64,000 nt of DNA from an uncultured Eubacteriales bacterium (lineage in GTDB: Bacteria; Bacillota; Clostridia; Christensenellales; Aristaeellaceae): positions 1 through 64,000 of the forward strand of contig CACWXP010000017.1 in NCBI GenBank assembly GCA_902764875.1, read 5' to 3'. How positions within the stretch are numbered: the first letter of the stretch is position 1; every line of letters begins with the position of its first letter. The notes under the pieces were generated by a model, which worked only from the letters and a program-made list of their open reading frames with translations, made no database searches and had not been told where the DNA came from. The translations under genes and the position numbers were made by a program. Below, in pieces: positions 40,063 to 60,265 of the stretch.

Positions 40063-41745
40063 TTATTTGTCGGCATAAATGCTCATTTCGAGGCGCTTTT
40101 CGAACTCGCGGACGGGGAGAGGCTTGTCGTAGTAGAACCCCTGGGCGATGTCGCAACCGCTTTTGCGGAGAATACTGACCTGATCGCCGGTTTCCACTCC
40201 CTCGGCTACACAGGTGAGGCCGATTTCCTTGGCCATGTTGACCACATGACGGAACATGATGTTCTGGCGGTTCTGAACGGCCTGTTCACTGTACGGAAGG
40301 AAATCCTTGTCGACCTTGAGAATGTTCCAGGGGATTTCGCGGATGAGGTTAAGGGAGCTGTATCCGATACCGAAATCGTCTACCGAGGTGAAGATGCCGG
40401 CTTCCTGCAGGCCGGTGACGATCCGCTTGAGATCCTTGAACTCGACGTCGGTGGTGGTCTCGGTCAGTTCGATTTCGATGAAGTGATGTGGAACGTGGTG
40501 CTTATCGACCACAGAGAGGATATGGTCCAGCAGATCCAGGTCAATCAGGTTGCGCCGGGAGAGGTTCACGGAAATGCGGACGACCGGCTTTCCTTCATCC
40601 AGCCAGCGGCGGATAAGCCTGCAGACCTGATCGAGTACGTAGAAATCGAGCTTGCAGATGTCCATGGACTGCTCCAGCACGGGGATAAACTCGGAGGGCA
40701 TAATCAGTTTTCCACTGTGATACCAGCGGCTGAGCGCCTCGGCGCCGACGATGGTGTTCGTGCTGACATTGATTTTCGGCTGGAAGAAAATCAGGATCTC
40801 TTCGTTCTGGAGCGCGACGGGGAACATCTGCTTCACCCGCATCATGTGCTCCTTCTGTTCCAGCATTTTTTCGTTGGAAAAGACCACATCGCCCCGGGCA
40901 CCGCTTTTTGCTGCATTGTAGGCGTTGATGATCCGGTCCATCAGGTCGCCGAAATCGTGATAATAGTAGTCGTCGGGAATCACGAATACGCCGGCGTGGG
41001 CGGACAGCATGGCCCGCCCTTCTTCCGAGTCGCCCAGCTGCACCGGGGCGCCTTCGAAGATGCTGATGACTTTGTCGAGATTTTCCTTGCGGAAGAGCAT
41101 GACAAAATTGTCGCCGCCGAGACGGCTGACAATGCCGTCTTCACCGACCTGCTGCTCCAGAAGGCGGATGTATTCCCGCATGACGCGGTTGCTGAGGTCG
41201 CGCCCCAGCTGCTGGTTGATGAGGGAGAAATGCTTTAAATCGATCCGGGCGGCGCAGAAATGGCAGAGCTCCTGCCGGTTGCCGATGGCTTCGACCACGT
41301 TGGTGAACATGCGGATGTTGCTGAAGTCGGCATCGTCATACAGCGTGGCCTTTTTGATCATCATCTTCATCCGGTCTTTACTGAGGAAGTTGAGCATCAT
41401 ACGCTGGACGACGTCGATGCGGGAGAGCTCCTCCTCCGTCCACGGTGCGTCGCCTTTGGCGTGATAGCACGTGCACTGGCCGACGAGCATGCCGGACAGC
41501 TCACTCCGGATGGTGACCGCCTTGTCGGACTCGACGCCGGTATCGTAGGGAATATAGGTGTCGCCTTCGCCCCTGCGCTCGAGGGCGATGCTGTTGTAGA
41601 ACGTGGTGACGCCTTTGCAGACGCGAAGCAGTTTGCACAGCTCCTGAAGATCCGCGACAATTTTGTCCACGCGGATCTGCTCCGGACTGACCATTTCGCG
41701 GGTGACTCTTTCAAGACACTCGAAATATTGTACATTCTGATCCAT
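40063..41745 (-). CDS. c-di-GMP phosphodiesterase: degenerate GGDEF plus EAL
   Basis: A 560-aa soluble protein expected to hydrolyse c-di-GMP. Residues about 1-140 are an unassigned, possibly GAF-like sensor region. The GGDEF domain (about 145-300) has GGDNF instead of GGDEF/GGEEF, so it is likely catalytically dead and may bind GTP as a regulator. The EAL domain (about 310-560) keeps EAL (GAEALSRW), IELTET, VDDFGIGYSS, KVDKDF and AEGVET, so it should be active. ATG 41745 is preferred over the adjacent GTG. No membrane segment is present. Confidence 0.88.
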   Translation of the reverse strand: MDQNVQYFECLERVTREMVSPEQIRVDKIVADLQELCKLLRVCKGVTTFYNSIALERRGEGDTYIPYDTGVESDKAVTIRSELSGMLVGQCTCYHAKGDAPWTEEELSRIDVVQRMMLNFLSKDRMKMMIKKATLYDDADFSNIRMFTNVVEAIGNRQELCHFCAARIDLKHFSLINQQLGRDLSNRVMREYIRLLEQQVGEDGIVSRLGGDNFVMLFRKENLDKVISIFEGAPVQLGDSEEGRAMLSAHAGVFVIPDDYYYHDFGDLMDRIINAYNAAKSGARGDVVFSNEKMLEQKEHMMRVKQMFPVALQNEEILIFFQPKINVSTNTIVGAEALSRWYHSGKLIMPSEFIPVLEQSMDICKLDFYVLDQVCRLIRRWLDEGKPVVRISVNLSRRNLIDLDLLDHILSVVDKHHVPHHFIEIELTETTTDVEFKDLKRIVTGLQEAGIFTSVDDFGIGYSSLNLIREIPWNILKVDKDFLPYSEQAVQNRQNIMFRHVVNMAKEIGLTCVAEGVETGDQVSILRKSGCDIAQGFYYDKPLPVREFEKRLEMSIYADK

Positions 41746-41860
41746 CACGTCTTACCCCTTCCGACGTCAAATCACAGATTACATTAGCATATTTTACCAT
41801 TCAAAAGAATGTAATTCAAGGATTTTTTGCTCGTTCTCTGTTCTTTTTTCCCATTTTCCC

Positions 41861-43729: not shown

Positions 43730-43758
43730 ATGGATTGGGCAACAAGGAGGAAAACTTT

Positions 43759-46700
43759 ATGATCTTTACAGAGCGAAAAACGATCGGCGTATTTATCAGC
43801 AAGATGTTCAGGAGCTTTGACGAAGCGTTTTTTGCCGCCATCGACCGGGAGGCCCGACGGCTGAATGTCGATGTGGTCGTTTTTCTGTCTGCAGGATACT
43901 ATCTGTCGACCACCGACTATGACCTTCAGGAAAAGAACATTCTGCGGCTTGCCCCGCTGGAAAAGCTGGACGGCATCCTCGTCGTGCCTTCCACCTATGA
44001 GAAGGGCGAATTCCGGAACCTGGTTTACGAAATGCTGGACAGAAGAATCAACTGTCCGGTGGCGGTGGTCCGTGAAGAAGCGGAACGGTTCAACAGCGTG
44101 TTTATGGATAATCTTGCCGCATTGCGGATGATGACCCGGCACCTGATTGAGGACCATCATCTGACAAAAATACGCATGCAGATCGGTGATTTTGAAAACC
44201 CGGAAGTGGCCGTGCGGCTGGCGGGCTTCAAAGAGGAAATGGCCGCGCACGGGCTGACGGTTTCGGAAAAGGACGTCTGCAGCGGCAATATGTGGACAAA
44301 CTGCGGCGAAAAAGCCTATAACGCTTTTTTCTCCGACCCGGAGGACCTTCCGGAGGCTGTGATCTGCGCCAACGACTATATGGCCATGGGCCTGATCCGC
44401 GTGCTGCGCGACAAGGGAATCCGGGTGCCGGAAGGCGTAATCGTTACCGGGTTTGACCATATTACGGACTGGGGCACCGATATTCCCAGCCTGACAACGA
44501 TTGAACCGGATTATCAGGGCATGGTGACCCACGCCATGGAACAGCTGGACCGGGAGATCCGCGGCGTATCGGAAAGCCGCATGAGGACCGGTCTGCCTGG
44601 GAAACTGATCCTCGGGGAAAGCTGCGGATGCGGAAAACGGCATAACGATTTCTACCGGGATATGACGAACCGGCTGACGGCCCTCCTGGAAGCGGAAAAC
44701 GACCAGGACGCGGCCATGAACAACATGAGCATCGACCTGGGGGCCTGCACCGACCTGACCGAACTGCACAAGGCCCTCGTCAGCCGGAGGACGGAGAATC
44801 CGATCGTCCGGGATCAGTATATCTGCCTGTTCGGAACGGCGGAAAAACTGATGGACGAAGAAAGCGAACAGGCCTGCCTGGTTCACGCGGTGCGGGATCA
44901 CCGGGACGCGGGCATGCCGATGATCACCTTCGACCGCAAAGACGTCCTTCCGCCCATGGCCGAACGGAAAGACGAAGCGCAGGTTTTTTATTTCAAACTG
45001 CTGCATCAGATGGGGCACAATTACGGGTATTGCGTGATTCATTACGACCCGGGGAAGGTTCCGTCCCGGTGCTTTGTGCAGACCAATGTGCTGCTGTCCA
45101 TCGCCCTGGAAAACATCCACAGGCAGCGTGAACTGATGGCCCTGTATGAGGAACGGCGGATTTCAAGCATTACGGATCATATGACGGGTCTTCTGAACCG
45201 GCGGGGCCTTCTGGAGTCCATCGAACCCTTCTGGGGCGCTTTGACGGGCCGGGATGTTGCGTTTATCTGCATCGACATGGACTATCTGAAGCATACGAAC
45301 GACAATTTCGGGCATGCGGCGGGAGACGTGGCCATCCGGATGATCGGCAAGGCCATTCAGCGGTCGCTGCCGAAGGGCGCGCTCGGCGCCAGAACCGGCG
45401 GGGACGAATTTATCATCTTCCTGCCGGACGCCCGGGACAAAGCGGCCAAAGAGCTGGTTCAGAAATTCCATCAGATTCTGGAGGAACTGAACCGGGAGGA
45501 ACGGCGGTCCTTCACGGTTTCCGCCAGCGTCGGATATCGGGTGGTGCAGCCCGGCCCGAGCATCACCGTTGACGAATGCATCCGAGCCAGCGACCAGGTG
45601 ATGTATCAGATCAAGGAAAACCGTCCGGACCAAAAGACCCGGGCCGCATGGAACAACTGGCAGACGGATCAGATGCCCATTCCTTTCGGAACGGCCACTG
45701 TCAATGCCCCTTATTACGCGCAACCCTGCAACGAGCGGCTGGCTTCCATCCCGGAGGCCCTGATGAAGCTTGCGGAGGGCGGCTATACCTGGGAGCACTC
45801 CTATGTGGCGGGGAAGCCGAACTACGCACTGACTCTGATGGACTATCCGAACATCTATTCCTTTATTCACACCCACGATCTGAACAGGGACGCCGTACGG
45901 AAGGTTCTGTCCGACGCGACGCTGATGGTGCACCGGAAAGCGTTTACGGAGGAGGAAATCGACCTGCTTCTGGACGACGATCAGGCGAAAGCCATGGCGC
46001 ACTTCGCTTCTCCGTCGACCATCGTGCTGGGCGCAAAGGGATACAGCGAGAAATGGATGTACGACCATACCTCCCAGACATGGAAGGCGGAAGGCATCAC
46101 CCCCGGCATGGTCATCGGGGTGATGAACCATTACTACAACCCGCTGTTTGTACAGAAAGCTGCGGACGCGTTCTCACGGAAGCTGTACAATTATACCAAT
46201 ATGGTGGTTCCCGTGAAGTGGAACCAGTGGAAAAAAGGCGAACTCCGGCCGGACGGCTCCATTGAAGAAGGAAACCCCGGGGGAAAGGGCGTGCTGCTGG
46301 ACGTGATGGAATTCTGTCAGTACGGCAATTATCCCACCGGGTGCGAGAGCGTAGCGCTGTACATGCTGCTGCAATTCTACAAGGCGGATGTGACGGTGGA
46401 CCGGATTTACGATCTGCTGCCCATGGGAGCGCAGCCTTTTGACACCGAGAGCGGCGTGCGCTACGGCGGGAACCCGGAACGGGAGTTCGTCGGGGATCCG
46501 AGAAAAGAGATCTCCTACGGCGTTTTCAATGCGCCGGTGGCCGGCGTCGCGGAGCAGATCCGGCCCGGCGTGAATACGAGAAAAGGCGCTGCGATCGACG
46601 AAATCAAAGCAATCCTTGATACGGGAAACCCGGTGCTGGCCTGGTATGTTTCCGCGCCGATGCGGCCGATAATGTACCGGTGGAGCTGGCAGGATACGGA

Positions 46701-46878
46701 CAGCGACGCCATGATCCACTGGCCGGGCGGCGAGCACGCGGTGGTGGTGTGCGGCTACAACGAAAACACCCTCGTGTACCGCGATCCGAACGCCGGCACC
46801 ACAGTTGAAATCGACTGCGAAACCTTTGAAAAGGGCTTTACGGAGATGGGCGGAAGAATCATCTGGTACGAACGGTAA
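43759..46878 (+). CDS. Fusion protein: LacI-type ligand-binding fold, GGDEF diguanylate cyclase, C39-like cysteine peptidase
   Basis: A 1039-aa protein without signal peptide or membrane helix. Residues about 1-285 match the sugar-binding periplasmic-binding fold of LacI-family regulators (TIGVFISKM at the start, VICANDYMAMGLIRVLRDKGIRVPEG, VTGFDHI) but without a DNA-binding helix-turn-helix. About 285-455 is unassigned. About 455-620 is a GGDEF domain with an intact GGDEF (547-551), so it should make c-di-GMP; no RxxD inhibitory site is seen. The C-terminal region contains a C39_2-like peptidase: Cys862 (YPTGCESVAL), His993 (GEHAVVVCGY) and Asp1009 (YRDPNAG). The 640-840 stretch is unassigned. 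ATG 43759 has an AGGAGG site. Cytoplasmic location and the function of the peptidase are inferred. Confidence 0.85.
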   Translation: MIFTERKTIGVFISKMFRSFDEAFFAAIDREARRLNVDVVVFLSAGYYLSTTDYDLQEKNILRLAPLEKLDGILVVPSTYEKGEFRNLVYEMLDRRINCPVAVVREEAERFNSVFMDNLAALRMMTRHLIEDHHLTKIRMQIGDFENPEVAVRLAGFKEEMAAHGLTVSEKDVCSGNMWTNCGEKAYNAFFSDPEDLPEAVICANDYMAMGLIRVLRDKGIRVPEGVIVTGFDHITDWGTDIPSLTTIEPDYQGMVTHAMEQLDREIRGVSESRMRTGLPGKLILGESCGCGKRHNDFYRDMTNRLTALLEAENDQDAAMNNMSIDLGACTDLTELHKALVSRRTENPIVRDQYICLFGTAEKLMDEESEQACLVHAVRDHRDAGMPMITFDRKDVLPPMAERKDEAQVFYFKLLHQMGHNYGYCVIHYDPGKVPSRCFVQTNVLLSIALENIHRQRELMALYEERRISSITDHMTGLLNRRGLLESIEPFWGALTGRDVAFICIDMDYLKHTNDNFGHAAGDVAIRMIGKAIQRSLPKGALGARTGGDEFIIFLPDARDKAAKELVQKFHQILEELNREERRSFTVSASVGYRVVQPGPSITVDECIRASDQVMYQIKENRPDQKTRAAWNNWQTDQMPIPFGTATVNAPYYAQPCNERLASIPEALMKLAEGGYTWEHSYVAGKPNYALTLMDYPNIYSFIHTHDLNRDAVRKVLSDATLMVHRKAFTEEEIDLLLDDDQAKAMAHFASPSTIVLGAKGYSEKWMYDHTSQTWKAEGITPGMVIGVMNHYYNPLFVQKAADAFSRKLYNYTNMVVPVKWNQWKKGELRPDGSIEEGNPGGKGVLLDVMEFCQYGNYPTGCESVALYMLLQFYKADVTVDRIYDLLPMGAQPFDTESGVRYGGNPEREFVGDPRKEISYGVFNAPVAGVAEQIRPGVNTRKGAAIDEIKAILDTGNPVLAWYVSAPMRPIMYRWSWQDTDSDAMIHWPGGEHAVVVCGYNENTLVYRDPNAGTTVEIDCETFEKGFTEMGGRIIWYER

Positions 46879-46915: not shown

Positions 46916-48085
46916 TTATTCCTGATTCCGAAGACGGGCGATCAGCCTGTCCAGGGATAAATCCTCCCATTCAATCAGCTCGATGCCCAGCTTGGCCGCG
47001 CGATTCCGAACGGACGCGCGGTTTCTGCTGCCCGCGATCCCCGAAGTGGCCAGGATGGCCCGGGAATACTTTCCGCCGAACCGTTCCCGGAGGATGGACA
47101 GCTCGTTGAGCGCCTCGGTGTGCACCTCACAGGCTTTGCAGCTGATAAACACGGGCCTGAGCTCCTGAACGGCCATGACGTCGATTTCGTTGGTGACGCT
47201 GTCGCTTCGGATGCTTCCGTTCTGCCAGTTCACAATGGCGCTGAGCACCACATCATCAAAGCAGCCGGCGGCTTTGCAGGCACGCCAGAGCTGCAGCTCG
47301 AGAACGGCGCCCACGTCCCGCAGCCAGAAACGGACGGTTTCATCCGGAAAACGGAAACGGATGCTGTCTTCGGTGATTTCCAGATCCAGAATCAGCTTTG
47401 ACTGGGCCAGGGCAGTGAAAAGACTCTGCTCCACGGTTACGTTACCGTTGCCCGTGTGTTCGGTGAGGGGGCCGGAGACTTCCAGCACGCCGGGTTCGGA
47501 GGACGAAACCTTCTGGAACCAGCTGATCTGCCTGTTCCAGATGCGGCGATATTTTCCGTAGATGGCAAAAAGGCTGTCGATCTGTTCGATGCGGCTTTCC
47601 AGTTCCGCATTATCCGCCCGGCCGGGCAGCAGCGTTCCGCCGGCCATCAGCAGACTGGATTCGACATCCAGCTTTATGTTGGGGATCACGCCCCTGGCAA
47701 AAGATGCATTGTTGATTTCGAAGAAAGCGTTCTTCCGGCGGCTGTAGGTGAAAACAGGCGTCAGGCATTTGTAGGCCACCGCCCCGGCGGCAAAAAGAGC
47801 CGCGTCCGATCCGCCGGATATGTTGATTGCACAGTCCTGATGGGAATCCTGCACTTCCTTCATCACTCTGGCGATTTTGACGGCATTATCCATACTGACG
47901 GGGATAAACGTCAGTTTTGTATCGATTCCTCTGTGCTTCAGGAAGTTCTTTGTGGCGCTTTTCAGCTCCCTGCTCTTCGCAATGTCGGGAGGGCAGAGCA
48001 GGACGCATTCCTGCGGGGAGAACACCAGCGTGGCCAGAACGTTCTCTATCGGCGAATCGTCGTACAGCTCGATCAACGTTTTCAT
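46916..48085 (-). CDS. Orphan Card1/Can2-like (DUF1887) protein: CARF-like sensor plus PD-(D/E)XK nuclease
   Basis: A 389-aa protein resembling Card1/Can2, nucleases activated by cyclic tetra-adenylate in type III CRISPR systems. Residues about 1-145 form a CARF-like Rossmann domain with INISGGSDAALFAAGAVAY (88-105), corresponding to the family's N-x-TGGTK motif but with SGGSD in its place. About 250-389 is a restriction-endonuclease fold: E263 (VLELQLW), E300/D302 (TNEIDVM) and K317 (ISCK), so the nuclease looks catalytically complete. No CRISPR array or Cas10 gene lies in the window. Translation has a GAGGGG site. It converges on the upstream GGDEF fusion. Ligand identity is not predictable. 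Confidence 0.78.
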   Translation of the reverse strand: MKTLIELYDDSPIENVLATLVFSPQECVLLCPPDIAKSRELKSATKNFLKHRGIDTKLTFIPVSMDNAVKIARVMKEVQDSHQDCAINISGGSDAALFAAGAVAYKCLTPVFTYSRRKNAFFEINNASFARGVIPNIKLDVESSLLMAGGTLLPGRADNAELESRIEQIDSLFAIYGKYRRIWNRQISWFQKVSSSEPGVLEVSGPLTEHTGNGNVTVEQSLFTALAQSKLILDLEITEDSIRFRFPDETVRFWLRDVGAVLELQLWRACKAAGCFDDVVLSAIVNWQNGSIRSDSVTNEIDVMAVQELRPVFISCKACEVHTEALNELSILRERFGGKYSRAILATSGIAGSRNRASVRNRAAKLGIELIEWEDLSLDRLIARLRNQE

Positions 48086-49152: not shown

Positions 49153-52100
49153 CTACCATTCCAGGATGCGGTCGAAGGGGAGAGGCCTGGCGTAGAAATA
49201 GCCCTGGAAGCTGCGGACATTGTATTTGCGCAGAATATCCCGCATACCGACGGTTTCAATCCCTTCCACACACACCTTTGCATTGCAGATGGACGCAAGG
49301 CCGACGATATTGCCGACGAGCTTTCGGTCGGTTTCGCTGTTTTCGATGTTCATGACGAAACTGCGGTCGATTTTAATGGTGTCAAAGGGAATCTTGCGGA
49401 TCAGCCCCACCGAGGAGAAGCCGGTTCCGAAGTCGTCCATGGCAATGAGAATCCCCATGGCTTTCAGGCGCACGATCACATTTTTGAGCAGGTCTTCATC
49501 CAGCAGACGGCAGCGTTCCGTGATCTCCAGGCACAAATGCTCCGGCGGATAATCCGTATCCTTCAGGATGTGCAGGACCGTATCCACGAAATCCGGCTTT
49601 TCCAGCTGGGTGTAGGACAGATTGACATTGATTACAAAGCCTGGATGCTTTTTCAGGATATTTTTTGCCGAAAACAGGGATTCCCGGAGGATCCAGGCGC
49701 CCAGCTCGGAAAACAGCGGATCCACCTCCAGCACGGGAATAAAATCGTCGGGCGGCACCATGCCGTATTTGTCGTTCTTCCAGCGGAGCAGCGCCTCCGC
49801 GCCGATGAGCTGTTCCGTCTGCGCATCCACCACCGGCTGGAACAGCAGATGGAACCCCTCAAAGTCATGGAGGATGGATTCCCGGATGGCGTGGAGCTTT
49901 TCCAGACGACGGTGGCTGCCTTCGCTGGGATCGTTATGAAACTCCGTGAGATCGCCGCGACGGCGAAGCTTGGATTCGTCGTAGGCGAAATTCAGGCAGC
50001 TGTAAACGGTCTGGGAATCGGTGTCAAAGCCGTCCACCCGGAGGGCGCCGCAGTTCAGATCCATAAGGACCTGCTGGCCGTCCACGGTAAAGGCTTCATG
50101 CAGATAAACCCGGAAACCGTTATAGAAATCCCGCAGTTCGGAAACGGAAAGGGTGTTGCTGATGATGGCAAACTTTGTACCGTCGATGCGGTAGGTATGT
50201 CCGGTGTTTCCGATCTTTTCGAACAGCGCGCGGGCATACTGCTGGATCACGCGGTTTCCGAAGTGGTAGCCGTAAATCTCGTTGACTTCGGAGAACTTGC
50301 TGATGCCGAGCAAAAGCACACTGACCGGCGCGTTCCGGCGAATGGCGTTATCCAGATCCTCAAAGAACCCGTATTGATTGCGGAAACCGGTGAGCGTGTC
50401 AATATGGCCCTGGATCCCGTGATTCCGGATGGTACCGGCGAAGTAATCCGGCTCTCCGGAGGGATCGCGGATCACCGTGCCGCGGCAGGTGCAGACGTCG
50501 TATTCCCCGGAAGGCCGGCGGGCACGGTACTGCATATCGTGGTCCCCGGCGTTTCCGCTGAAGATTTCATCAATGCCTTTGTGATAAGCTTCCCGGTCGT
50601 CGGGATGAATATGGTTTTCCCAGATGTCGCCCGCGCCGTACATATACTCGGAGGGCAGATCAAAGGTTTCCACCGCGTTTTTGGACCAGCGGGAGAAATC
50701 GTATTTCATGTCGCAGAGATAGACATAGGTTCCCTCCGAAACGATTTCGAAGGACTTGAACAGCGTGTCCAGCATGGTGCGCCGCTCGTCGGTGATCATC
50801 CTGAAATTGGCCATCTGCATGAGCATGCGGGCTTCCTGTAGACGCTTTTCTTCCTTCAGGCGGGTTTTGTCATCGTACATCTGATGATCCGCCCGGTTGA
50901 AAACGTCCTCCACAGACAGATCGTGATTCGGAATATAGTCCGCCAGGCCGGCGGCTACAACCGCACCTTCGCCCTTTCGGACATTGTTCAGCGACTGTTT
51001 GTTCAGATCGGTGATCAGCTTCAGCCGGTTTTTATAATCCTCGCCTACGAGAACGATCAGGAATTCATCCCCGCCGATGCGAAACACAGGGCTGTGCTGG
51101 AAGGTGCGGCAGACCAGCAGAGAGGAAGCGCGGATATAATCATCGCCGGCCTTGTGCCCCTCGGTGTCGTTGACCGCTTTCAGCCCGTTGATATCGCAGA
51201 TCACCAGACCGAAGGGATCGCAGCCGCCGGCGGCAATGCGGCGCTGCAGCTCGTTTTCCAGCTCGGTCCAGGCGGTTTTGTTCTTTGTGTGCGTCAGGGA
51301 ATCCTGACGCGCCATCTTGTTGGCCACGGACAGCTCCGCCAGGTGCTCCTGCTCCTTTTTGACTTCGCTGTCGCGGTTCTCCACACAGATAATGAAATGG
51401 CTCTGATCGGAGGAGTAGGTGACGGACATGCGGGTATACTGCGTTTTGCCGCCGCCGACATTCATCCGATAATCCTCGTAGACCTGCCGGGTATTCTCCA
51501 GACGGGAAATCAGGTGATCCCTGTCCAGAAATCCACGGATTCTTTCCCGGTCCTCCGGGAAGATCAGCCGGTCCACATTCATGCGGGAGGACGTAAAAAA
51601 GTCTTTTCCCTCCGCCTGTACCTTGAACTGTCCGGACTTGTGCTTCGTGGAAAGCTCCTTATACGCGGAGGTTTCACAGTCCACGTAGTAAATGAGGTCG
51701 TAATGATCGGCCAGACGCTCGGCAATCTGGGTGTAGGTGACGCTTTTTTCCTGCTCTTCCTCCAGTGCCTGCTTCGCCCGCACCTCGGCATCGATATTCT
51801 TCACGCAGACGATGATGTGTTTTTTGTCCCTGGCCATGATCTCGGTATGCCGGATATGCTGCACCCGGCCGTTTACCACGAGGCGGTAGGCGACGGAGAA
51901 GGAATTCCTGTTCTTCAGATTTTTCAGCATCACATCTTTATAATGGAGCTTCAGAATCTTTTCCTGGTCCTCCGGATGGACATATTTTGCGATGCTGCGG
52001 CGGCTTTCGGCGAAGAAATCGTTCCCCGTGGCCGGGACGTTCAGCTTTTTGTATTCGTCGGTTGATGAAATCTCATCGTAGAAATTGGTGGCGATATCGA

Positions 52101-52635
52101 TATAGTACAGCGTATCGTACTGCTCGGCGAGGCTTTCGGTGATCTGGTCGTACACTTCCTTCTGGCGGGCAATTTCCATGTCCATTTCACGCTGTCGGTA
52201 CTGGGCGTCCACGTCGTTGAGACCGACGATCAGCCGGGGACCGTCCTTCTCAGTGATCATGGCGGCGTTCATCTGGACATGGATGGGTTTGCCGTCCATC
52301 ATCAGCCGGTAAACCAGGGTGAAAATGCCGTCACGCTCAATGGAGGAAAGGATATTTTCCCTCTTAAAGGAAGCCAGGAACCGTTCTTCATCGTCCGGAT
52401 GGTTAAAGGTTTTGAAGACCTCCCGGACGGTTTTGAAGAAATCCGACCCGTCCTTGGCCTGCTTAAAGCTGTCGACAAAATTGTCGGTGGCGCTGAACTC
52501 CCGGTATTCATCTGTTTCCGGGTTCACCAGGTAGACGCAGATGAAATTCCCCGTCAGCGCATGCAGACGGGCATAGATCATCCGTTCTTCCTCCAGCTGG
52601 TCCAGTTCAGTTCGGTTATGCTCATTCAAACTCAT
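49153..52635 (-). CDS. Multi-sensor c-di-GMP enzyme: three PAS-like repeats, GGDEF, PAS, degenerate GGDEF, EAL
   Basis: A 1160-aa soluble protein. Residues about 20-435 hold three PAS-like units of some 140 residues each (each with a YYID/YLVN-type strand and a histidine/acidic HPEDxE or FPEDRE motif). A GGDEF domain with an intact GGDEF (around residue 520) follows, then a fourth PAS (about 640-765), a second GGDEF-like domain in which GGDEF is replaced by DGTKF (around 815), and an EAL domain (about 900-1160) with intact GAEAL, LEITER, MDDFGTGFSS, KIDRSF and EGIET. It may both make and degrade c-di-GMP. ATG 52635 has a GAGGAGGG site. No membrane segment. Confidence 0.88.
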   Translation of the reverse strand: MSLNEHNRTELDQLEEERMIYARLHALTGNFICVYLVNPETDEYREFSATDNFVDSFKQAKDGSDFFKTVREVFKTFNHPDDEERFLASFKRENILSSIERDGIFTLVYRLMMDGKPIHVQMNAAMITEKDGPRLIVGLNDVDAQYRQREMDMEIARQKEVYDQITESLAEQYDTLYYIDIATNFYDEISSTDEYKKLNVPATGNDFFAESRRSIAKYVHPEDQEKILKLHYKDVMLKNLKNRNSFSVAYRLVVNGRVQHIRHTEIMARDKKHIIVCVKNIDAEVRAKQALEEEQEKSVTYTQIAERLADHYDLIYYVDCETSAYKELSTKHKSGQFKVQAEGKDFFTSSRMNVDRLIFPEDRERIRGFLDRDHLISRLENTRQVYEDYRMNVGGGKTQYTRMSVTYSSDQSHFIICVENRDSEVKKEQEHLAELSVANKMARQDSLTHTKNKTAWTELENELQRRIAAGGCDPFGLVICDINGLKAVNDTEGHKAGDDYIRASSLLVCRTFQHSPVFRIGGDEFLIVLVGEDYKNRLKLITDLNKQSLNNVRKGEGAVVAAGLADYIPNHDLSVEDVFNRADHQMYDDKTRLKEEKRLQEARMLMQMANFRMITDERRTMLDTLFKSFEIVSEGTYVYLCDMKYDFSRWSKNAVETFDLPSEYMYGAGDIWENHIHPDDREAYHKGIDEIFSGNAGDHDMQYRARRPSGEYDVCTCRGTVIRDPSGEPDYFAGTIRNHGIQGHIDTLTGFRNQYGFFEDLDNAIRRNAPVSVLLLGISKFSEVNEIYGYHFGNRVIQQYARALFEKIGNTGHTYRIDGTKFAIISNTLSVSELRDFYNGFRVYLHEAFTVDGQQVLMDLNCGALRVDGFDTDSQTVYSCLNFAYDESKLRRRGDLTEFHNDPSEGSHRRLEKLHAIRESILHDFEGFHLLFQPVVDAQTEQLIGAEALLRWKNDKYGMVPPDDFIPVLEVDPLFSELGAWILRESLFSAKNILKKHPGFVINVNLSYTQLEKPDFVDTVLHILKDTDYPPEHLCLEITERCRLLDEDLLKNVIVRLKAMGILIAMDDFGTGFSSVGLIRKIPFDTIKIDRSFVMNIENSETDRKLVGNIVGLASICNAKVCVEGIETVGMRDILRKYNVRSFQGYFYARPLPFDRILEW

Positions 52636-54825: not shown

Positions 54826-54854
54826 GTGACTTTCCGGGCGGGATATGATATACT
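54826..54854 (+). promoter_or_regulatory. Extended -10 promoter for the Cys-module GGDEF/EAL gene
   Basis: GTGACT (54826-54831), 17-base spacer, TATACT (54849-54854) with TG before it. It overlaps an upstream ATG at 54845, which therefore cannot be the start codon. Confidence 0.7.
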
Positions 54855-54928
54855 GGGTTCGTCAGCAAACGGAGAACCTCAACGGAAACGCTGACAATCT
54901 CCCTGCTCAGAAACGGAATTACAGAAAA

Positions 54929-57900
54929 ATGTTCACGCAGAAGAAAGAAAACGGATTGAAAGAAAAAGGGTTATCCCTGCGGGCTGTGTATCTCTGGACG
55001 ATGGTCATCGTTCTGGTCCTTTCCGGCCTGACGTTTTATGCGACCTTCAACCTCACCGGTACTTTTCAGAACCTGACGGACGCGACGGAAAACCAGATCT
55101 CCCTGGACAAGGCTGTTCATGACCTGATGAGCGCGTCGGATTACCTGACGGAACGCGTCCAGCGCTTCAGCATCAGCGGCGACCCGCGGTTCATGAACGA
55201 ATACTTCACTGAGGTGCTGGAAACCAACCGGCGGGAGAACGCCATTGAAAAAATGGCCGGTGTTGAGGGAACTGCCGCGGCCTTTGAACAGCTTCAGGAA
55301 GCCATGGAAGGTTCCAAAGCCCTGATGCAACGCGAACTCTACTCGATGCGGCTGGTTACGGAGGCCAAAGGGATTACAGCCATGCCCGCGGAGCTTCGGG
55401 ACGTCACGCTTTCGGCAGAGGACGCCGCCCTTGCACCGGAAGAAAAGATGCGGCGGGCGACGGAAACGGTGATGGACGAGGCCTACTACAACCAGAAGGA
55501 AAGCATCCGGACAGATCTGCAGGAAAGCCTTGACGCGCTGGAAGCGCTGACCCGGAACGCAGAAAACAACGCCTTCAGCAACGTGCGGCGGGACATGCGC
55601 TTTGTCCGCGGCGTGATTATCTTCCATATCTTCGGCACCATCGCGCTGATCTGGGTGACGATCCGCTTCGGCATCAATCCGATTATGAAGGCCGTGGACA
55701 GGATCCGCGGCGACCGCCCGATTGAAGAAAAGGGCGCCAACGAATTCCGCTATCTGGCCCGGGCGTACAACGGCCTGACCGTTCAGCTGAGCGAAGAAAA
55801 CGAGCTGCTGAAAGAAATTTCCCGGACCGACGGCCTGACCGGCATCCGCAACCGGATCGCGCTCCGGGACGACTATGATTCCTACAAAGGGCATGAAGTG
55901 ACGGTTATGCTGCTGGATCTTGACAATTTCAAGACCATCAACGACACCAACGGCCACGAGGAAGGCGACCGGATTCTGAGCGAGACGGGCAAGCTGATCG
56001 GGGAGGCCTTCGGAAAAGATCACTGCTACCGTTTCGGAGGGGACGAATTCATGGTGATCCTTCCGGACTGCTCTGAAGCGGAATTCCTTAAGAAACTGGA
56101 TTGGGTGATGGCCAACCGCCCGATCCTTCAGGATCACGGACAAAGCACGCCGGCCGGGTATTCCGTGGGCTATGTGCACGCGGTGCTGGACGACCGCCGG
56201 AATCTGCGGGATCTTTTCGCCGAAGCCGATCAGAAAATGTACCAGATCAAGCGCGACAAGGTTCGGGCGGAAAAGATCGCCGGCGTACGAAACCAGTCCC
56301 GCCGCGAGGATTCTGTGATCCGGCCGGCGGAATATACGACGGAAGAAATGCGGGCGCTTCTGGCTCAGGCGGACGGGATGTACGACCTGGCCCGGGTGGT
56401 GGATCCGATTGAATGCCGGATCCTGGAGTTCGGCAGCGACGGAACGATCAGCCGGAAGGAAAAGTGCTACGGGATCTGGAACGCAGATCAGAAATGCGTA
56501 AACTGTTCCAGCGCCCTGGCCTGCAGAACCGGATGCCGGCAGGAAAAGGCCGAATCCTTCAACAATCAGCTGTATCATATTCAGTCGAACCCGGTGCGGC
56601 TGAAGCTTCCAGACGGCGGCGCCTACGACGCAGTTGTGGAACTGGTGAGCATTGAGCAGAGCAACCGGGACGCCCACGCGACCAACGACCGGGCGGCGGA
56701 AAACAAGAACCAGCGGGCTGCCCAGTACCGCGCCCAGCACGACACCCTGACCAAGACGCTGAATGCCAACACCTTCTCGGAAATGGCCCGGGAACTGCTG
56801 GTGCGGAATCCGGAGCTTCCCTGGGTCATGATCACCAGCAACATCATGGATTTCCGGCTGGTCAATACGCTGTTCGGCACCCAGAGAGGCAACGAAGCCA
56901 TCGTGCGGAACGCCGCCGCGCTGCAGCAGATCGCCATTACCTGCAACGGCCTTTGCGGAAGGCTGGGCGGCGATCAGTTCGCGCTGCTCCTTCCGAAGGG
57001 AAACTACCGGGAGGAAATGCTGGCGGAAGCCGCCGCAGCGCTCCGGCACGAGTTCAGCAGCGGCGTCTATACGTTCTGTATCCACTTCGGCGTGTATGAT
57101 GTGGAAGATCCCTCCATCCCGATTTCCGTGATGTGTGACCGGGCCAACATGGCGCTGCGGACCATCCGGGACGATCACCGGGAAACCATCGCAACATTCA
57201 AACCTGAGATGATGAAGAAGAGCCTGTTTGCGCAGGAAGTCATCAGCAGCTTTGAGAAGGCCCTCGCAGCCAACCAGTTCCGGATGTATCTGCAGCCCCT
57301 GGCCGCGGAGGACGGCACTATTATCGGAGCGGAAGCACTTGCCAGATGGCAGCGGCCGGACGGCACGGTCGTCACTCCCTCCGATTTCATTGAAACCCTT
57401 GAACACGCCGGCATGATTCACCGGCTGGACGTTTTCATCTGGGAGAAGGCCGTGCGGCAGCTGGCCGCCTGGAGAGGCACGGAACACGGGCATCTGTCGA
57501 TCTCCGTCAATATGTCGGCGAAGGATTTCTACAACATTGATCCCTATCTGGTGCTGACAGAGCTGGCCGACCGGTATCAGGTTCCCTGCAGCCATCTGCG
57601 GATTGAGATCACGGAAACGGCCCTGCTGGAAGATCCGGCGAATGTGAACGAAGTGATTTCCCGGCTTCGGCAGAGAGGGTTCCTGGTGGAGATTGACGAT
57701 TTCGGGAAGGGCTGGTCTTCGCTGGGCCTGCTGAAGGATATTCAGGCGGACGTGTTGAAGATTGATATGAGCCTGATGCAGGAGATCGAACACAAGCCGC
57801 GGAGCCGGATTATCCTTGAATCGATCATCGACATGGCCGGATCGCTGGGGATGGACGTGATCTGCGAAGGCGTTGAAACGGAAGAGCAGCTGAACCTGGT

Positions 57901-58000
57901 GAAAGCCATGGGCTGCCGGCACTTCCAGGGATACTATTTCTCCTGCCCGGTACCTCCGGAGCAATTCGGGAATTGCTGTAAGTCAAAAGCGTCATCGTAA
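54929..58000 (+). CDS. Membrane sensor c-di-GMP enzyme: two-TM sensor, HAMP-like, GGDEF, Cys-rich PAS-like module, degenerate GGDEF, EAL
   Basis: A 1023-aa membrane protein. TM1 about 19-41, an external helical sensor (about 42-223), TM2 about 224-248, then a HAMP-like linker. GGDEF1 is intact (FGGDEF near residue 370). A module at about 450-600 has five cysteines (513, 523, 526, 532, 536) in CYGIWNADQKCVNC and CRTGC, a pattern seen in other clostridial GGDEF proteins and possibly metal or redox sensing. The second GGDEF is GGDQF (near 680). EAL (about 780-1020) keeps GAEAL, IEITET, IDDFGKGWSS, KIDMSL, EGVET. ATG 54929 has a weak site; the promoter excludes ATG 54845. Confidence 0.87.
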   Translation: MFTQKKENGLKEKGLSLRAVYLWTMVIVLVLSGLTFYATFNLTGTFQNLTDATENQISLDKAVHDLMSASDYLTERVQRFSISGDPRFMNEYFTEVLETNRRENAIEKMAGVEGTAAAFEQLQEAMEGSKALMQRELYSMRLVTEAKGITAMPAELRDVTLSAEDAALAPEEKMRRATETVMDEAYYNQKESIRTDLQESLDALEALTRNAENNAFSNVRRDMRFVRGVIIFHIFGTIALIWVTIRFGINPIMKAVDRIRGDRPIEEKGANEFRYLARAYNGLTVQLSEENELLKEISRTDGLTGIRNRIALRDDYDSYKGHEVTVMLLDLDNFKTINDTNGHEEGDRILSETGKLIGEAFGKDHCYRFGGDEFMVILPDCSEAEFLKKLDWVMANRPILQDHGQSTPAGYSVGYVHAVLDDRRNLRDLFAEADQKMYQIKRDKVRAEKIAGVRNQSRREDSVIRPAEYTTEEMRALLAQADGMYDLARVVDPIECRILEFGSDGTISRKEKCYGIWNADQKCVNCSSALACRTGCRQEKAESFNNQLYHIQSNPVRLKLPDGGAYDAVVELVSIEQSNRDAHATNDRAAENKNQRAAQYRAQHDTLTKTLNANTFSEMARELLVRNPELPWVMITSNIMDFRLVNTLFGTQRGNEAIVRNAAALQQIAITCNGLCGRLGGDQFALLLPKGNYREEMLAEAAAALRHEFSSGVYTFCIHFGVYDVEDPSIPISVMCDRANMALRTIRDDHRETIATFKPEMMKKSLFAQEVISSFEKALAANQFRMYLQPLAAEDGTIIGAEALARWQRPDGTVVTPSDFIETLEHAGMIHRLDVFIWEKAVRQLAAWRGTEHGHLSISVNMSAKDFYNIDPYLVLTELADRYQVPCSHLRIEITETALLEDPANVNEVISRLRQRGFLVEIDDFGKGWSSLGLLKDIQADVLKIDMSLMQEIEHKPRSRIILESIIDMAGSLGMDVICEGVETEEQLNLVKAMGCRHFQGYYFSCPVPPEQFGNCCKSKASS

Positions 58001-58066: not shown

Positions 58067-60265
58067 TTGAAAAACGTGACGACCCGAAAACGACAACTGA
58101 AGAAGCTGCTCTGTCTGCTCCTCGTGCCGCTTTGCCTGACGTTCGCCACGATTTGCGCAGCCGGAGCCGAAACACTGACCGTCGGCGTGCCGACCGACCG
58201 GTGCCCGATTTTCTATCGGGATGATCAGACGCAGGAAATCATCGGGATCGGCGCCGACCTGATGCGGTCCGCCGCCGGGAACGCCGGATACGACGTTACC
58301 TTCGTTCAGATCGCGGAGCCCACCCTGAAGGAAGCACTGGACAATCCGGAATACGACGTGGTGATGCCCTTCGGCAGCGCCATCTTCAGCGCGGCCGGCA
58401 ATGCGACCGCCGTTTCGGACAACCTTTTCCAGCCCCCCTTTACGCTGGTGACGAAAGGCACCCGCAAACTTCCGGAATTCAACCGGCTGAAGGTCGGGAT
58501 GCTCCGGTCCCAGGGCGGCGTCGCGGAGACCGTTCGCCAGCTGTACCCCGGCATCGAAATCAACATGTACGAGACCATGCCGGAATGCGTGAAAGCCCTG
58601 CGGGAAGGCCGGGTGGACGCGCTGCTGCACAACTCCTATGTGTGGAGCTATGTGCTGCAGAAGCCTTCCTATGAGGACCTGACCATCCAGCCTTCCGCCA
58701 TGTTCACCATGGATTTCCGGGTCGGCACCCCAGACACCGAAGAGGGACGGGCCGTCATTGAACGGCTGAACCGGGGCATTGCCGAGCTGACGGAGACCCG
58801 GCGGCAGGCCATCGCCCTGGACTATACCTCGCGGAAGCTCTATCAATACGACTTCGGCGATTATCTTTATCAGTACAAGTGGATTCTGCTGCTCGTGGGA
58901 GCAGTAACCGTGCTGATGATTCTGATCACAATACAGAAACAGCGGAGCATCCGGCTGCGGCATGAAGAGAAGCTGGAACAGGTTGTGAACACGGATCCGC
59001 TGACCGGCGCGCTGAGCATGAGCGGCTTCCGGAAACGGGCGGAAGAGCTGATCCGGGCGCATCCGGATATTCCTTATCTGATTTCCTTCAACAATATTAA
59101 GAATTTCACCTTCATCAACGACAGCCTGGGGCGGGAAGCCGGAGACGAACTGCTGCGTTTCTGGGCCGCGAAGTCCATGGAACACCTGAATGACAATGAA
59201 TGTATCGGACACATCACGGCCGACCGCTTTGCCATTCTTTTTCAGGCGTCGGGCGATGAGAAGATCGTTCAGGATATCCGGGATGTCGGCGACCCCGTCC
59301 GCAATTACTTTATCGACCGCGGAAAGGAAACGCCCGTCCGCCTTTGCTCCGGGATTTACGTGCTGACCCCGCAGGATTACCAGGAGATCAATGTGGACCG
59401 CATGCTGGACTGCGCCAGGATCGCGGAGCGCAAAGTTCGGCACAACCGCAAGGACGGATATGAATTCTATAACCCGGATCAGTGGCAGAAAGGAAAGAAG
59501 ATTTCGGATATCTGCAACCACCTGCCGAATGCCATGGTCAACGGGGAAATCCGGGTGTGGTATCAGCCGCAAGTCCATTTTGAAACAGGCAAGATCATCG
59601 GGGCGGAAGCGCTGTGCCGCTGGAATCACTCCAGGCTCGGGTGGATTTCTCCGACCGAATTCATTCCGCTGCTGGAAGAATCCGACCTGATCTATGAGCT
59701 GGACTGCTTTGTGTGGGAGAGCGTGTGCAGGGATCTGCAGCGGTGGAACGGGCAGGGAAAACACCGGTCGGTATCGGTGAACCTTTCCCGATGCGACATC
59801 CGGGAGGACCGGAACATTCCCGAACAGTTCGCGGGCCTGATCCGCACCTACGGGCTGACGCCGGATCAGCTTCGGATCGAGATCACGGAAACCGCCTTTG
59901 CGGAAAACAGCGACCTTGTGATCCGCACCACCGTGCAGCTTCGGGAACTGGGTTTCCAGGTGGAAATGGATGACTTCGGCAGCGGATACTCCTCGCTGCA
60001 CATGCTGAAGGAAGTGCCGGTGGACCGCATCAAGATGGACCTCCATTTCCTTGCGGACAGCGGCAATCCGGAAAAAGGACAGATCATCGTGAGCTATATC
60101 ATTCAGATGATCCGGTCCCTTGGGCTGAGCGTGATTGCCGAGGGCGTGGAAAACATTTCCCAGGCCAGCTTCCTGCAGAGCCACGGCTGCTCGGAGATGC
60201 AGGGATTTTATTTCTACAAGCCGATGCCTGTGGAAGAGTATGAAGCAATTGAAACAGAACAGTGA
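58067..60265 (+). CDS. Solute-binding-domain c-di-GMP phosphodiesterase (SBP_bac_3, degenerate GGDEF, EAL)
   Basis: A 732-aa membrane protein. Signal sequence about 1-35, an external solute-binding domain of the amino-acid type (about 36-265; family 3, e.g. PIFYRDDQTQEIIGIGADLM), one TM helix (about 272-292), then a degenerate GGDEF domain (TADRF instead of GGDEF, near 381) and an EAL domain with intact GAEAL (near 512), IEITET, MDDFGSGYSS, KMDLHF and EGVEN. The expected role is to break down c-di-GMP in response to an external small molecule, probably an amino acid. Start is TTG 58067 after AAAGGAG. It follows the Cys-module gene by 66 bases, so the two may be co-transcribed. Confidence 0.88.
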   Translation: MKNVTTRKRQLKKLLCLLLVPLCLTFATICAAGAETLTVGVPTDRCPIFYRDDQTQEIIGIGADLMRSAAGNAGYDVTFVQIAEPTLKEALDNPEYDVVMPFGSAIFSAAGNATAVSDNLFQPPFTLVTKGTRKLPEFNRLKVGMLRSQGGVAETVRQLYPGIEINMYETMPECVKALREGRVDALLHNSYVWSYVLQKPSYEDLTIQPSAMFTMDFRVGTPDTEEGRAVIERLNRGIAELTETRRQAIALDYTSRKLYQYDFGDYLYQYKWILLLVGAVTVLMILITIQKQRSIRLRHEEKLEQVVNTDPLTGALSMSGFRKRAEELIRAHPDIPYLISFNNIKNFTFINDSLGREAGDELLRFWAAKSMEHLNDNECIGHITADRFAILFQASGDEKIVQDIRDVGDPVRNYFIDRGKETPVRLCSGIYVLTPQDYQEINVDRMLDCARIAERKVRHNRKDGYEFYNPDQWQKGKKISDICNHLPNAMVNGEIRVWYQPQVHFETGKIIGAEALCRWNHSRLGWISPTEFIPLLEESDLIYELDCFVWESVCRDLQRWNGQGKHRSVSVNLSRCDIREDRNIPEQFAGLIRTYGLTPDQLRIEITETAFAENSDLVIRTTVQLRELGFQVEMDDFGSGYSSLHMLKEVPVDRIKMDLHFLADSGNPEKGQIIVSYIIQMIRSLGLSVIAEGVENISQASFLQSHGCSEMQGFYFYKPMPVEEYEAIETEQ

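What the first reader, a model, noticed from the sequence alone, without database searches (positions are those of the whole stretch)
43759..46878. LacI-type sensor fused to a diguanylate cyclase and a C39-like cysteine peptidase
The protein links a sugar-binding-type fold without DNA-binding domain, an intact GGDEF (547-551), and a C-terminal domain with Cys862, His993 and Asp1009 in C39_2-like contexts. C39 peptidases are normally found in bacteriocin exporters or as secreted enzymes; linking one to c-di-GMP synthesis in one soluble chain is unusual. A ligand-gated pathway in which c-di-GMP production and proteolysis are coupled is possible. The 640-840 stretch has no assignment.
Basis: partly seen in the sequence, partly recalled or inferred. 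Interest (0 to 1): 0.7.

Follow-up and report, generated by a model that had tools for sequence, protein, structure and literature searches.

The report
Wall-enzyme tail on intracellular signalling protein
A gut Clostridia protein that probably senses a small molecule and makes the signal c-di-GMP has gained, by one gene fusion, a cysteine-hydrolase-like tail whose close relatives are exported cell-wall proteins, so an outside-the-cell module seems to have been put to work inside the cell.

Summary
In detail: window 43759-46878 (+) encodes 1039 aa with a LacI-type ligand fold (no HTH hit), an intact GGDEF motif and a Peptidase_C39_2 domain (Pfam 1.5e-19). Cys862, His993, Asp1009 and Gln854 are invariant in 21 aligned sequences. 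Residues 640-832 are a helical domain X without Pfam or PDB relatives; with C39_2 it forms one conserved ~400-aa module. LacI-GGDEF relatives occur in 58 of 308 family genomes; 3 carry the tail. Trees of front and tail each make these three one clade (100/100): one fusion moved a wall-type module into the cytoplasm. X and C39 are under purifying selection (dN/dS about 0.11-0.22), as are sensor and cyclase. Best reading: a ligand-responsive cyclase with a probably active cytosolic cysteine hydrolase, or else a peptide-binding tail. Substrate, activity and coupling are untested. Known parts, new combination, rare.

The parts
43759..46878 (+). fusion gene LacI fold - GGDEF - X - C39_2, 1039 aa
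   Evidence: two more genomes with the same architecture
43744..43750 (+). Shine-Dalgarno-like AAGGAGG eight bases before the ATG
   Evidence: read from sequence
43783..44625 (+). LacI/periplasmic-binding-type ligand domain, residues 9-289, no HTH
   Evidence: Pfam; LacI-family PDB matches
44626..45153 (+). middle region, residues 290-465, inside the stretch matched by tail-less relatives, no Pfam family
45169..45624 (+). GGDEF domain, residues 471-622
45397..45411 (+). GGDEF motif, residues 547-551
45625..45675 (+). fusion linker, residues 623-639; homology to tail-less relatives ends about here
45676..46254 (+). domain X, residues 640-832, helical, no known family
46300..46791 (+). Peptidase_C39_2 domain, residues 848-1011
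46318..46320 (+). Gln854, candidate oxyanion residue, invariant
   Evidence: role recalled for papain-like enzymes
46342..46344 (+). Cys862, candidate nucleophile
46735..46737 (+). His993, candidate catalytic base
46783..46785 (+). Asp1009, candidate third catalytic residue

Best explanation
A soluble cytoplasmic diguanylate cyclase, controlled by a small ligand through its LacI-type fold, gained by one fusion the X-C39_2 module of an exported cell-wall protein and has kept that module intact. Shown by sequence: the domains, no signal peptide-like or membrane segment, a single fusion origin, invariant catalytic residues, purifying selection on the tail. Inferred: the GGDEF domain makes c-di-GMP; the C39_2 domain is an active cysteine hydrolase; ligand binding or cyclase dimerisation changes its activity or access. 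The most likely substrate, by descent from wall enzymes, is a cytosolic peptide such as a recycled wall peptide or a wall precursor (weak inference).
For: Domains. Catalytic residues invariant in the 21 sequences of A1, window included; of 162 columns invariant in 19 non-fused rows the window keeps 153, and the catalytic ones are unchanged. Relatives with SH3_6/NLPC_P60/SLH, GH25, dockerin, LPXTG. No hydrophobic segment in the window protein or L028: best 19-residue mean 0.97 and 1.16, against N-terminal maxima of 1.43-3.15 in the 16 non-fused rows examined. One clade in both trees. 3 fused among the 58 of 308 family genomes with a LacI-GGDEF match. dN/dS of X 0.11-0.22 and C39 0.12-0.16 in the three fusion pairs, against 0.12-0.27 for GGDEF and 0.17-0.21 for LacI (ratios taken from dN and dS). 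C39-like and papain-like structure matches.
Against: No activity data. Only three genomes, all in many contigs. The fusion lineage evolves somewhat faster in the module (stem branch 0.17; window end branch 0.25 against a median of 0.12), and one non-fused pair is more constrained (L002-L030: dN/dS about 0.05-0.07). Position 856, two residues after Gln854 and proline in all 19 non-fused rows, is changed in all three fusions. The two trees disagree on the branching inside the clade (window with L029, 85/70; L028 with L029, 100/98). The structure model is moderate (pLDDT 69, pTM 0.51), low at module residues 206-220 just before Cys862, 261-282 and 327-341. The genes around it give no clue to substrate or ligand.
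Confidence: 0.55

Rival explanations
1. The tail is an input, not an output: X-C39_2 binds a cytosolic peptide or wall fragment in its old active-site cleft and tunes the cyclase, with catalysis lost or irrelevant, as recalled for the C39-like domain of HlyB-type transporters.
For: One chain with a known kind of output (GGDEF); position 856 beside the candidate oxyanion Gln is changed in all three fusions; weak structure hits include the C39-like domain 3zua (E 0.023) and HlyB/D 7sgr (E 0.010).
Against: Cys862, His993, Asp1009 and Gln854 are kept in all three fusions; a pure binding domain would be free to lose the nucleophile.
Confidence: 0.22
2. The peptidase acts on signalling proteins: it clips itself or other cytosolic targets, so that ligand binding switches c-di-GMP output irreversibly.
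For: The genome has 37 GGDEF matches, so possible targets are many; precedent for c-di-GMP control of a cysteine protease in LapD/LapG (listing and abstract starts).
Against: No partner gene seen; the three fusion genes lie in different neighbourhoods as judged by eye from ORF lists and the window's Pfam scan. No search for cleavage sites was made.
Confidence: 0.1
3. Passive tail: a near-neutral fusion in which X-C39_2 does nothing useful.
For: Rare (3 of 308 genomes); longer module branches in the fusion clade.
Against: dN/dS 0.11-0.22 in X and C39 over dS about 0.6-1.4; reading frame and catalytic residues kept in three genomes of two genera (genus codes g1 and g35).
Confidence: 0.06
4. The tail still acts outside the cell, after non-classical export or release.
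For: The module's place elsewhere is the envelope.
Against: No signal peptide-like or membrane segment; no AGGAGG-like site before the internal Met638 in the three junction sequences (by eye); a GGDEF enzyme needs cytosolic GTP (established knowledge).
Confidence: 0.05

Closest known systems
Exported SH3_6-NlpC/P60-SLH-X-C39_2 proteins of the same bacterial family (own paralogue G000:C30, L092:8451-11531)
   Same: Same ~400-aa X-C39_2 module, 72% identical, same catalytic residues
   Different: Signal peptide-like N-terminus and wall domains in front instead of LacI-GGDEF
LacI-fold GGDEF proteins without tail (nearest: G043, 63% identical, L095)
   Same: Same sensor, middle region and GGDEF
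   Different: End right after the GGDEF domain; no X-C39_2
3erv, putative C39-like peptidase (solved structure)
   Same: C39_2 fold and aligned Cys/His/Asp
   Different: A 236-residue chain, too short for X, sensor or cyclase; function not established here
LapD/LapG c-di-GMP-controlled cysteine protease
   Same: Links c-di-GMP to a cysteine protease
   Different: Two proteins across the inner membrane, another protease family, a c-di-GMP receptor rather than a cyclase (details partly recalled)
C39 peptidases of bacteriocin ABC exporters (PF03412; PCAT1, ComA)
   Same: Distant papain-like fold relation
   Different: No transporter domains; PF03412 scores 22.2 against a cut-off of 22, far below the 71.4 of PF13529

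Membership tests
Peptidase_C39_2 (PF13529) | profile score above the curated cut-off | tested here: met
   71.4 bits, cut-off 24
Peptidase_C39_2 (PF13529) | Cys, His, Asp at catalytic positions | tested here: met
   aligned with 3erv; invariant in 21 rows
Peptidase_C39_2 (PF13529) | papain-like arrangement of the active site in space | tested here: inconclusive
   secondary-structure placement fits and Foldseek's matches with E <= 0.001 are C39-like or papain-like by description or known fold; distances not measured, pLDDT 69
Peptidase_C39_2 (PF13529) | peptide-bond hydrolysis | not testable with these tools
   needs an enzyme assay
GGDEF diguanylate cyclases (PF00990) | profile score and GG(D/E)EF motif | tested here: met
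   117.4 bits, cut-off 23.8; motif at 547-551
GGDEF diguanylate cyclases (PF00990) | RxxD product-inhibition site before the motif (optional in the family; motif recalled) | tested here: not met
   the residues there are PKGA
LacI-family transcription regulators | N-terminal HTH DNA-binding domain | tested here: not met
   ligand fold starts at residue 9; no HTH hit
LacI-family transcription regulators | LacI-type ligand-binding fold | tested here: met
   Pfam; LacI/PurR chains in the PDB down to 3.2e-20
C39 bacteriocin-exporter peptidases (ABC type) | fused ABC transporter membrane and ATPase domains | tested here: not met
   no such domain, no hydrophobic segment
Exported X-C39_2 wall proteins | X-C39_2 module | tested here: met
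   59-78% identity over ~400 aa to 22 of the 23 other rows; 53% to the partial, divergent L049
Exported X-C39_2 wall proteins | signal peptide or membrane anchor | tested here: not met
   hydropathy only, no signal-peptide predictor
LapD/LapG system | LapG-type protease and membrane c-di-GMP receptor | tested here: not met
   no such Pfam hit, no hydrophobic segment

The most novel reading that the evidence does not exclude
A single soluble chain in which one ligand sets both c-di-GMP synthesis and hydrolysis (or sensing) of wall-derived peptides in the cytoplasm: an exported cell-wall hydrolase module re-used inside the cell as a signalling part that reports or adjusts wall turnover, with an uncharacterised domain X recognising the substrate.
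Probability: 0.22. Interest if true: 0.78.

Novelty: new variant of a known kind. Interest (0 to 1): 0.52.

Why it matters
It looks like a natural case of an enzyme module changing sides of the membrane by gene fusion and then being kept under selection, joined to second-messenger synthesis. If the tail is active it would tie c-di-GMP to a cysteine hydrolase in one soluble chain; the LapD/LapG precedent needs two proteins and a membrane. The exported and cytosolic versions in one genome make a ready comparison. Domain X is a highly conserved, unnamed domain that deserves a name and a structure.

Tried and rejected
Stand-alone translation of the tail from Met638 was considered and set aside: no AGGAGG-like sequence at the junction in the three fusions (by eye only).

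A fusion scar from the SLH domain in the linker (A.W..W..Q.MP against A.W..Y/W..QKMP) was tested by shuffling the 20-residue linkers against 12 wall-protein upstreams: 321, 497 and 314 of 5000 shuffles reached the observed score. Suggestive only, not claimed.

Assembly artefact was rejected: three separate assemblies share the architecture and a recognisable linker. Recent foreign DNA was not supported: GC3 of X 0.741 and C39 0.774 against 0.69-0.77 for the three N-terminal parts.

Phage or plasmid origin of the module: the viral-contig scan gave no relative (6 stretches matched a pattern, none confirmed). tblastn at E <= 1e-5 hit 5 of 50,697 phage records and 14 of 72,556 plasmid records; none covers 80% of the query, and the rows shown (5 of 5 and 10 of 14) cover the C39 part, query 191-400.

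Domain X fold: Pfam, PDB by sequence profile (best E 0.37) and Foldseek of an X-only model (best E 0.82) gave nothing usable. PilZ in the own genome: no match at E <= 0.001. ORF lists around six tail-less relatives, read by eye, shared nothing with the window.

Literature searches that gave nothing used here: listings; one review was read in passages; 0 papers.

Full report
Observation. The ORF at 43759-46878 (+) is real: ATG after AAGGAGG, 1039 aa. Pfam finds a LacI/periplasmic-binding-type fold (9-289), GGDEF (471-622, 6.7e-34) and Peptidase_C39_2 (848-1011, 1.5e-19). LacI and PurR structures match within residues 1-297. There is no HTH hit. The C39 part matches 3erv, a putative C39-like peptidase, at 1.8e-15 with the single sequence and 9.8e-19 with a profile, with Cys862, His993 and Asp1009 aligned to its Cys, His and Asp.

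The tail is one module. A search with residues 640-1039 finds relatives in the bacterial family of the window: 25 of 308 genomes at E <= 1e-10. That count includes the window's own genome, several contig-edge fragments, one degenerate copy with stops (G014) and one 33% match to the C39 part only (G189). Genome contigs gave 24 loci, largely the same records, many from ruminant gut by their titles, including four Oscillospiraceae/Ruminococcus records. In a 21-row alignment (window and 20 of the 24 loci; left out: L031 near-copy, L049 divergent, L050 and L051 fragments) both halves are strongly conserved and Gln854, Cys862, His993 and Asp1009 are invariant. Domain X has no Pfam, PDB-sequence or PDB-fold relative. 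In a phylum sample X was found in 1 of 279 genomes, the window's own. A class sample of 391 genomes gave matches in 14; in the 13 other than the window's own they cover only the C39 part (profile positions 185-393).

What carries the module elsewhere. Pfam scans of 21 proteins with the module (window not counted) show: 12 with SH3_6 and NLPC_P60 (SH3_6 above its cut-off in 12, NLPC_P60 in only 2 of the 12; SLH seen in 8 of the 12, above its cut-off in 3), including the 72% identical paralogue of the same genome (L092:8451-11531); 2 with GH25 and dockerin (L044, L046); 2 with dockerin without GH25 (L047, L048); 2 with only a hydrophobic N-terminus (L034, L036); 1 that looks truncated and has neither (L039); and 2 LacI-GGDEF fusions (L028, L029), the window being the third. 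L045, L050 and L051 are cut by contig ends, so their fronts are unknown; L031 was not scanned. So, apart from the fusions, 18 of 19 look like envelope proteins. C39_2 is also listed as a catalytic domain of Gram-positive phage endolysins (PMC8223927 and PMC13284279, one passage each read). In the dockerin-bearing relatives the dockerin lies between X and C39; the window's linker KKGELRPDGSIEEG aligns with its first loop, perhaps a remnant (inference by eye; Pfam finds no dockerin in the window protein).

Where the front came from. LacI-GGDEF relatives are found at E <= 1e-100 in 58 of 308 family genomes. Of 35 homologues read to their stop, 33 stop just after the GGDEF domain and 2 (L093 and L094, the genes of L028 and L029) go on into X-C39. 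For the other tail-less matches I rely on the open-frame lengths; two of them, G024 and G307, are matched only to residues 456 and 577, so their ends were not seen, but neither genome has a tail match. The tree of the front (36 rows) puts the three fused proteins in one clade, 100/100, inside tail-less ones, with tail-less G043 as sister. The tree of the module (22 rows) also makes them one clade, 100/100, among non-fused ones. The trees disagree on the order inside the clade (85/70 against 100/98). The simplest history is one fusion. G043 is not among the genomes with a tail match.

Has the tail been kept? Yes. Pairwise dN/dS (NG86, ratios) for window-L028, window-L029 and L028-L029: X 0.15, 0.11, 0.22; C39 0.13, 0.16, 0.12; GGDEF 0.14, 0.27, 0.12; LacI 0.20, 0.17, 0.21. 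Two non-fused pairs gave 0.05-0.13. Of 162 columns invariant in 19 non-fused rows, the fusions change 9, 8 and 12, never a catalytic one; positions 856, 916, 1030 and 1035 are changed in all three. Against full constancy: the module's branches to and within the fusion clade are on the long side.

Where does it act? The window protein and L028 have no strongly hydrophobic stretch (best 19-residue mean 0.97 and 1.16), while the 16 non-fused rows examined have N-terminal maxima of 1.43-3.15 (L002, L031, L039, L041 and L045 were not in that test). No signal-peptide predictor was run. A GGDEF enzyme needs cytosolic GTP (established knowledge). So the tail is most likely cytosolic.

Active site. The model of the module (pLDDT 69, pTM 0.51) starts a helix at Cys862 (223 in the model), puts His993 (354) at the second residue of strand 353-361 and Asp1009 (370) at the end of strand 365-370, as in papain-like enzymes. 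Foldseek's 11 matches with E <= 0.001 are 3erv (5.5e-10), papain-like toxins, a pseudomurein endoisopeptidase and the ComA peptidase. No coordinates were available, so distances were not measured.

Mechanism. Most likely a ligand-responsive cyclase with a cytosolic cysteine hydrolase whose ancestral work was on the envelope. The own genome has 37 GGDEF matches and no PilZ match, so c-di-GMP signalling is probably in use there, through receptors I did not identify. It has two C39_2 matches, the window's and the exported paralogue. The substrate guess (recycled wall peptides or precursors) rests on descent only. The sensory rival remains open.

Literature. No paper was found on GGDEF with a C39 peptidase in one protein: searches 'GGDEF' + 'peptidase C39' (2 papers, listing only, judged unrelated from title and abstract start), 'diguanylate cyclase' + 'GGDEF' + 'cysteine protease domain' + 'fused' (0), and 'diguanylate cyclase' + 'domain architecture' + 'peptidase domain' + 'GGDEF' + 'unusual' (1, listing only). 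These cover only the held open-access library. A review (PMC8846402, passages only) lists the LacI-type binding domain among putative sensors in c-di-GMP proteins and says that of the PBP clan only SBP_bac_3 had been studied. A C39_2 protein is listed in an Enterococcus biofilm screen (PMC6753144, one passage). LapD/LapG papers were seen as listing and abstract starts only.

Verdict.

Noticed in passing
40066-41748 (-), 49156-52635 (-), 54845-57997 (+), 58067-60262 (+): Four GGDEF-EAL proteins close to the fusion gene: with the fusion, 7 of the genome's 37 GGDEF matches lie in this 64-kb window of a 3.27-Mb assembly.
   Followed up: partly
46919-48085 (-): The next gene resembles a Card1-type nuclease (Card1_endonuc 25.8 bits, just under the cut-off of 26.4), a family recalled as a CRISPR type III helper. 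No CRISPR search was made.
   Followed up: no
L044, L046, L047, L048: Dockerin type I domain between X and C39_2 in Oscillospiraceae/Ruminococcus records, suggesting a link of the module to cellulosome-like assemblies.
   Followed up: partly
L049 (G160:C34): X domain of the usual kind followed by a strongly different C39_2 domain, cut by the contig end: the peptidase half seems to have been swapped.
   Followed up: no
L026 (G014:C15:1847-1981) and L039: A degenerate fragment with stops and a shortened copy without an evident signal peptide of the non-fused form.
   Followed up: no
window 45676-46254; alignment A3: Domain X: 193 residues, 60 columns invariant in 15 sequences, helical, with no named family.
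   Followed up: yes
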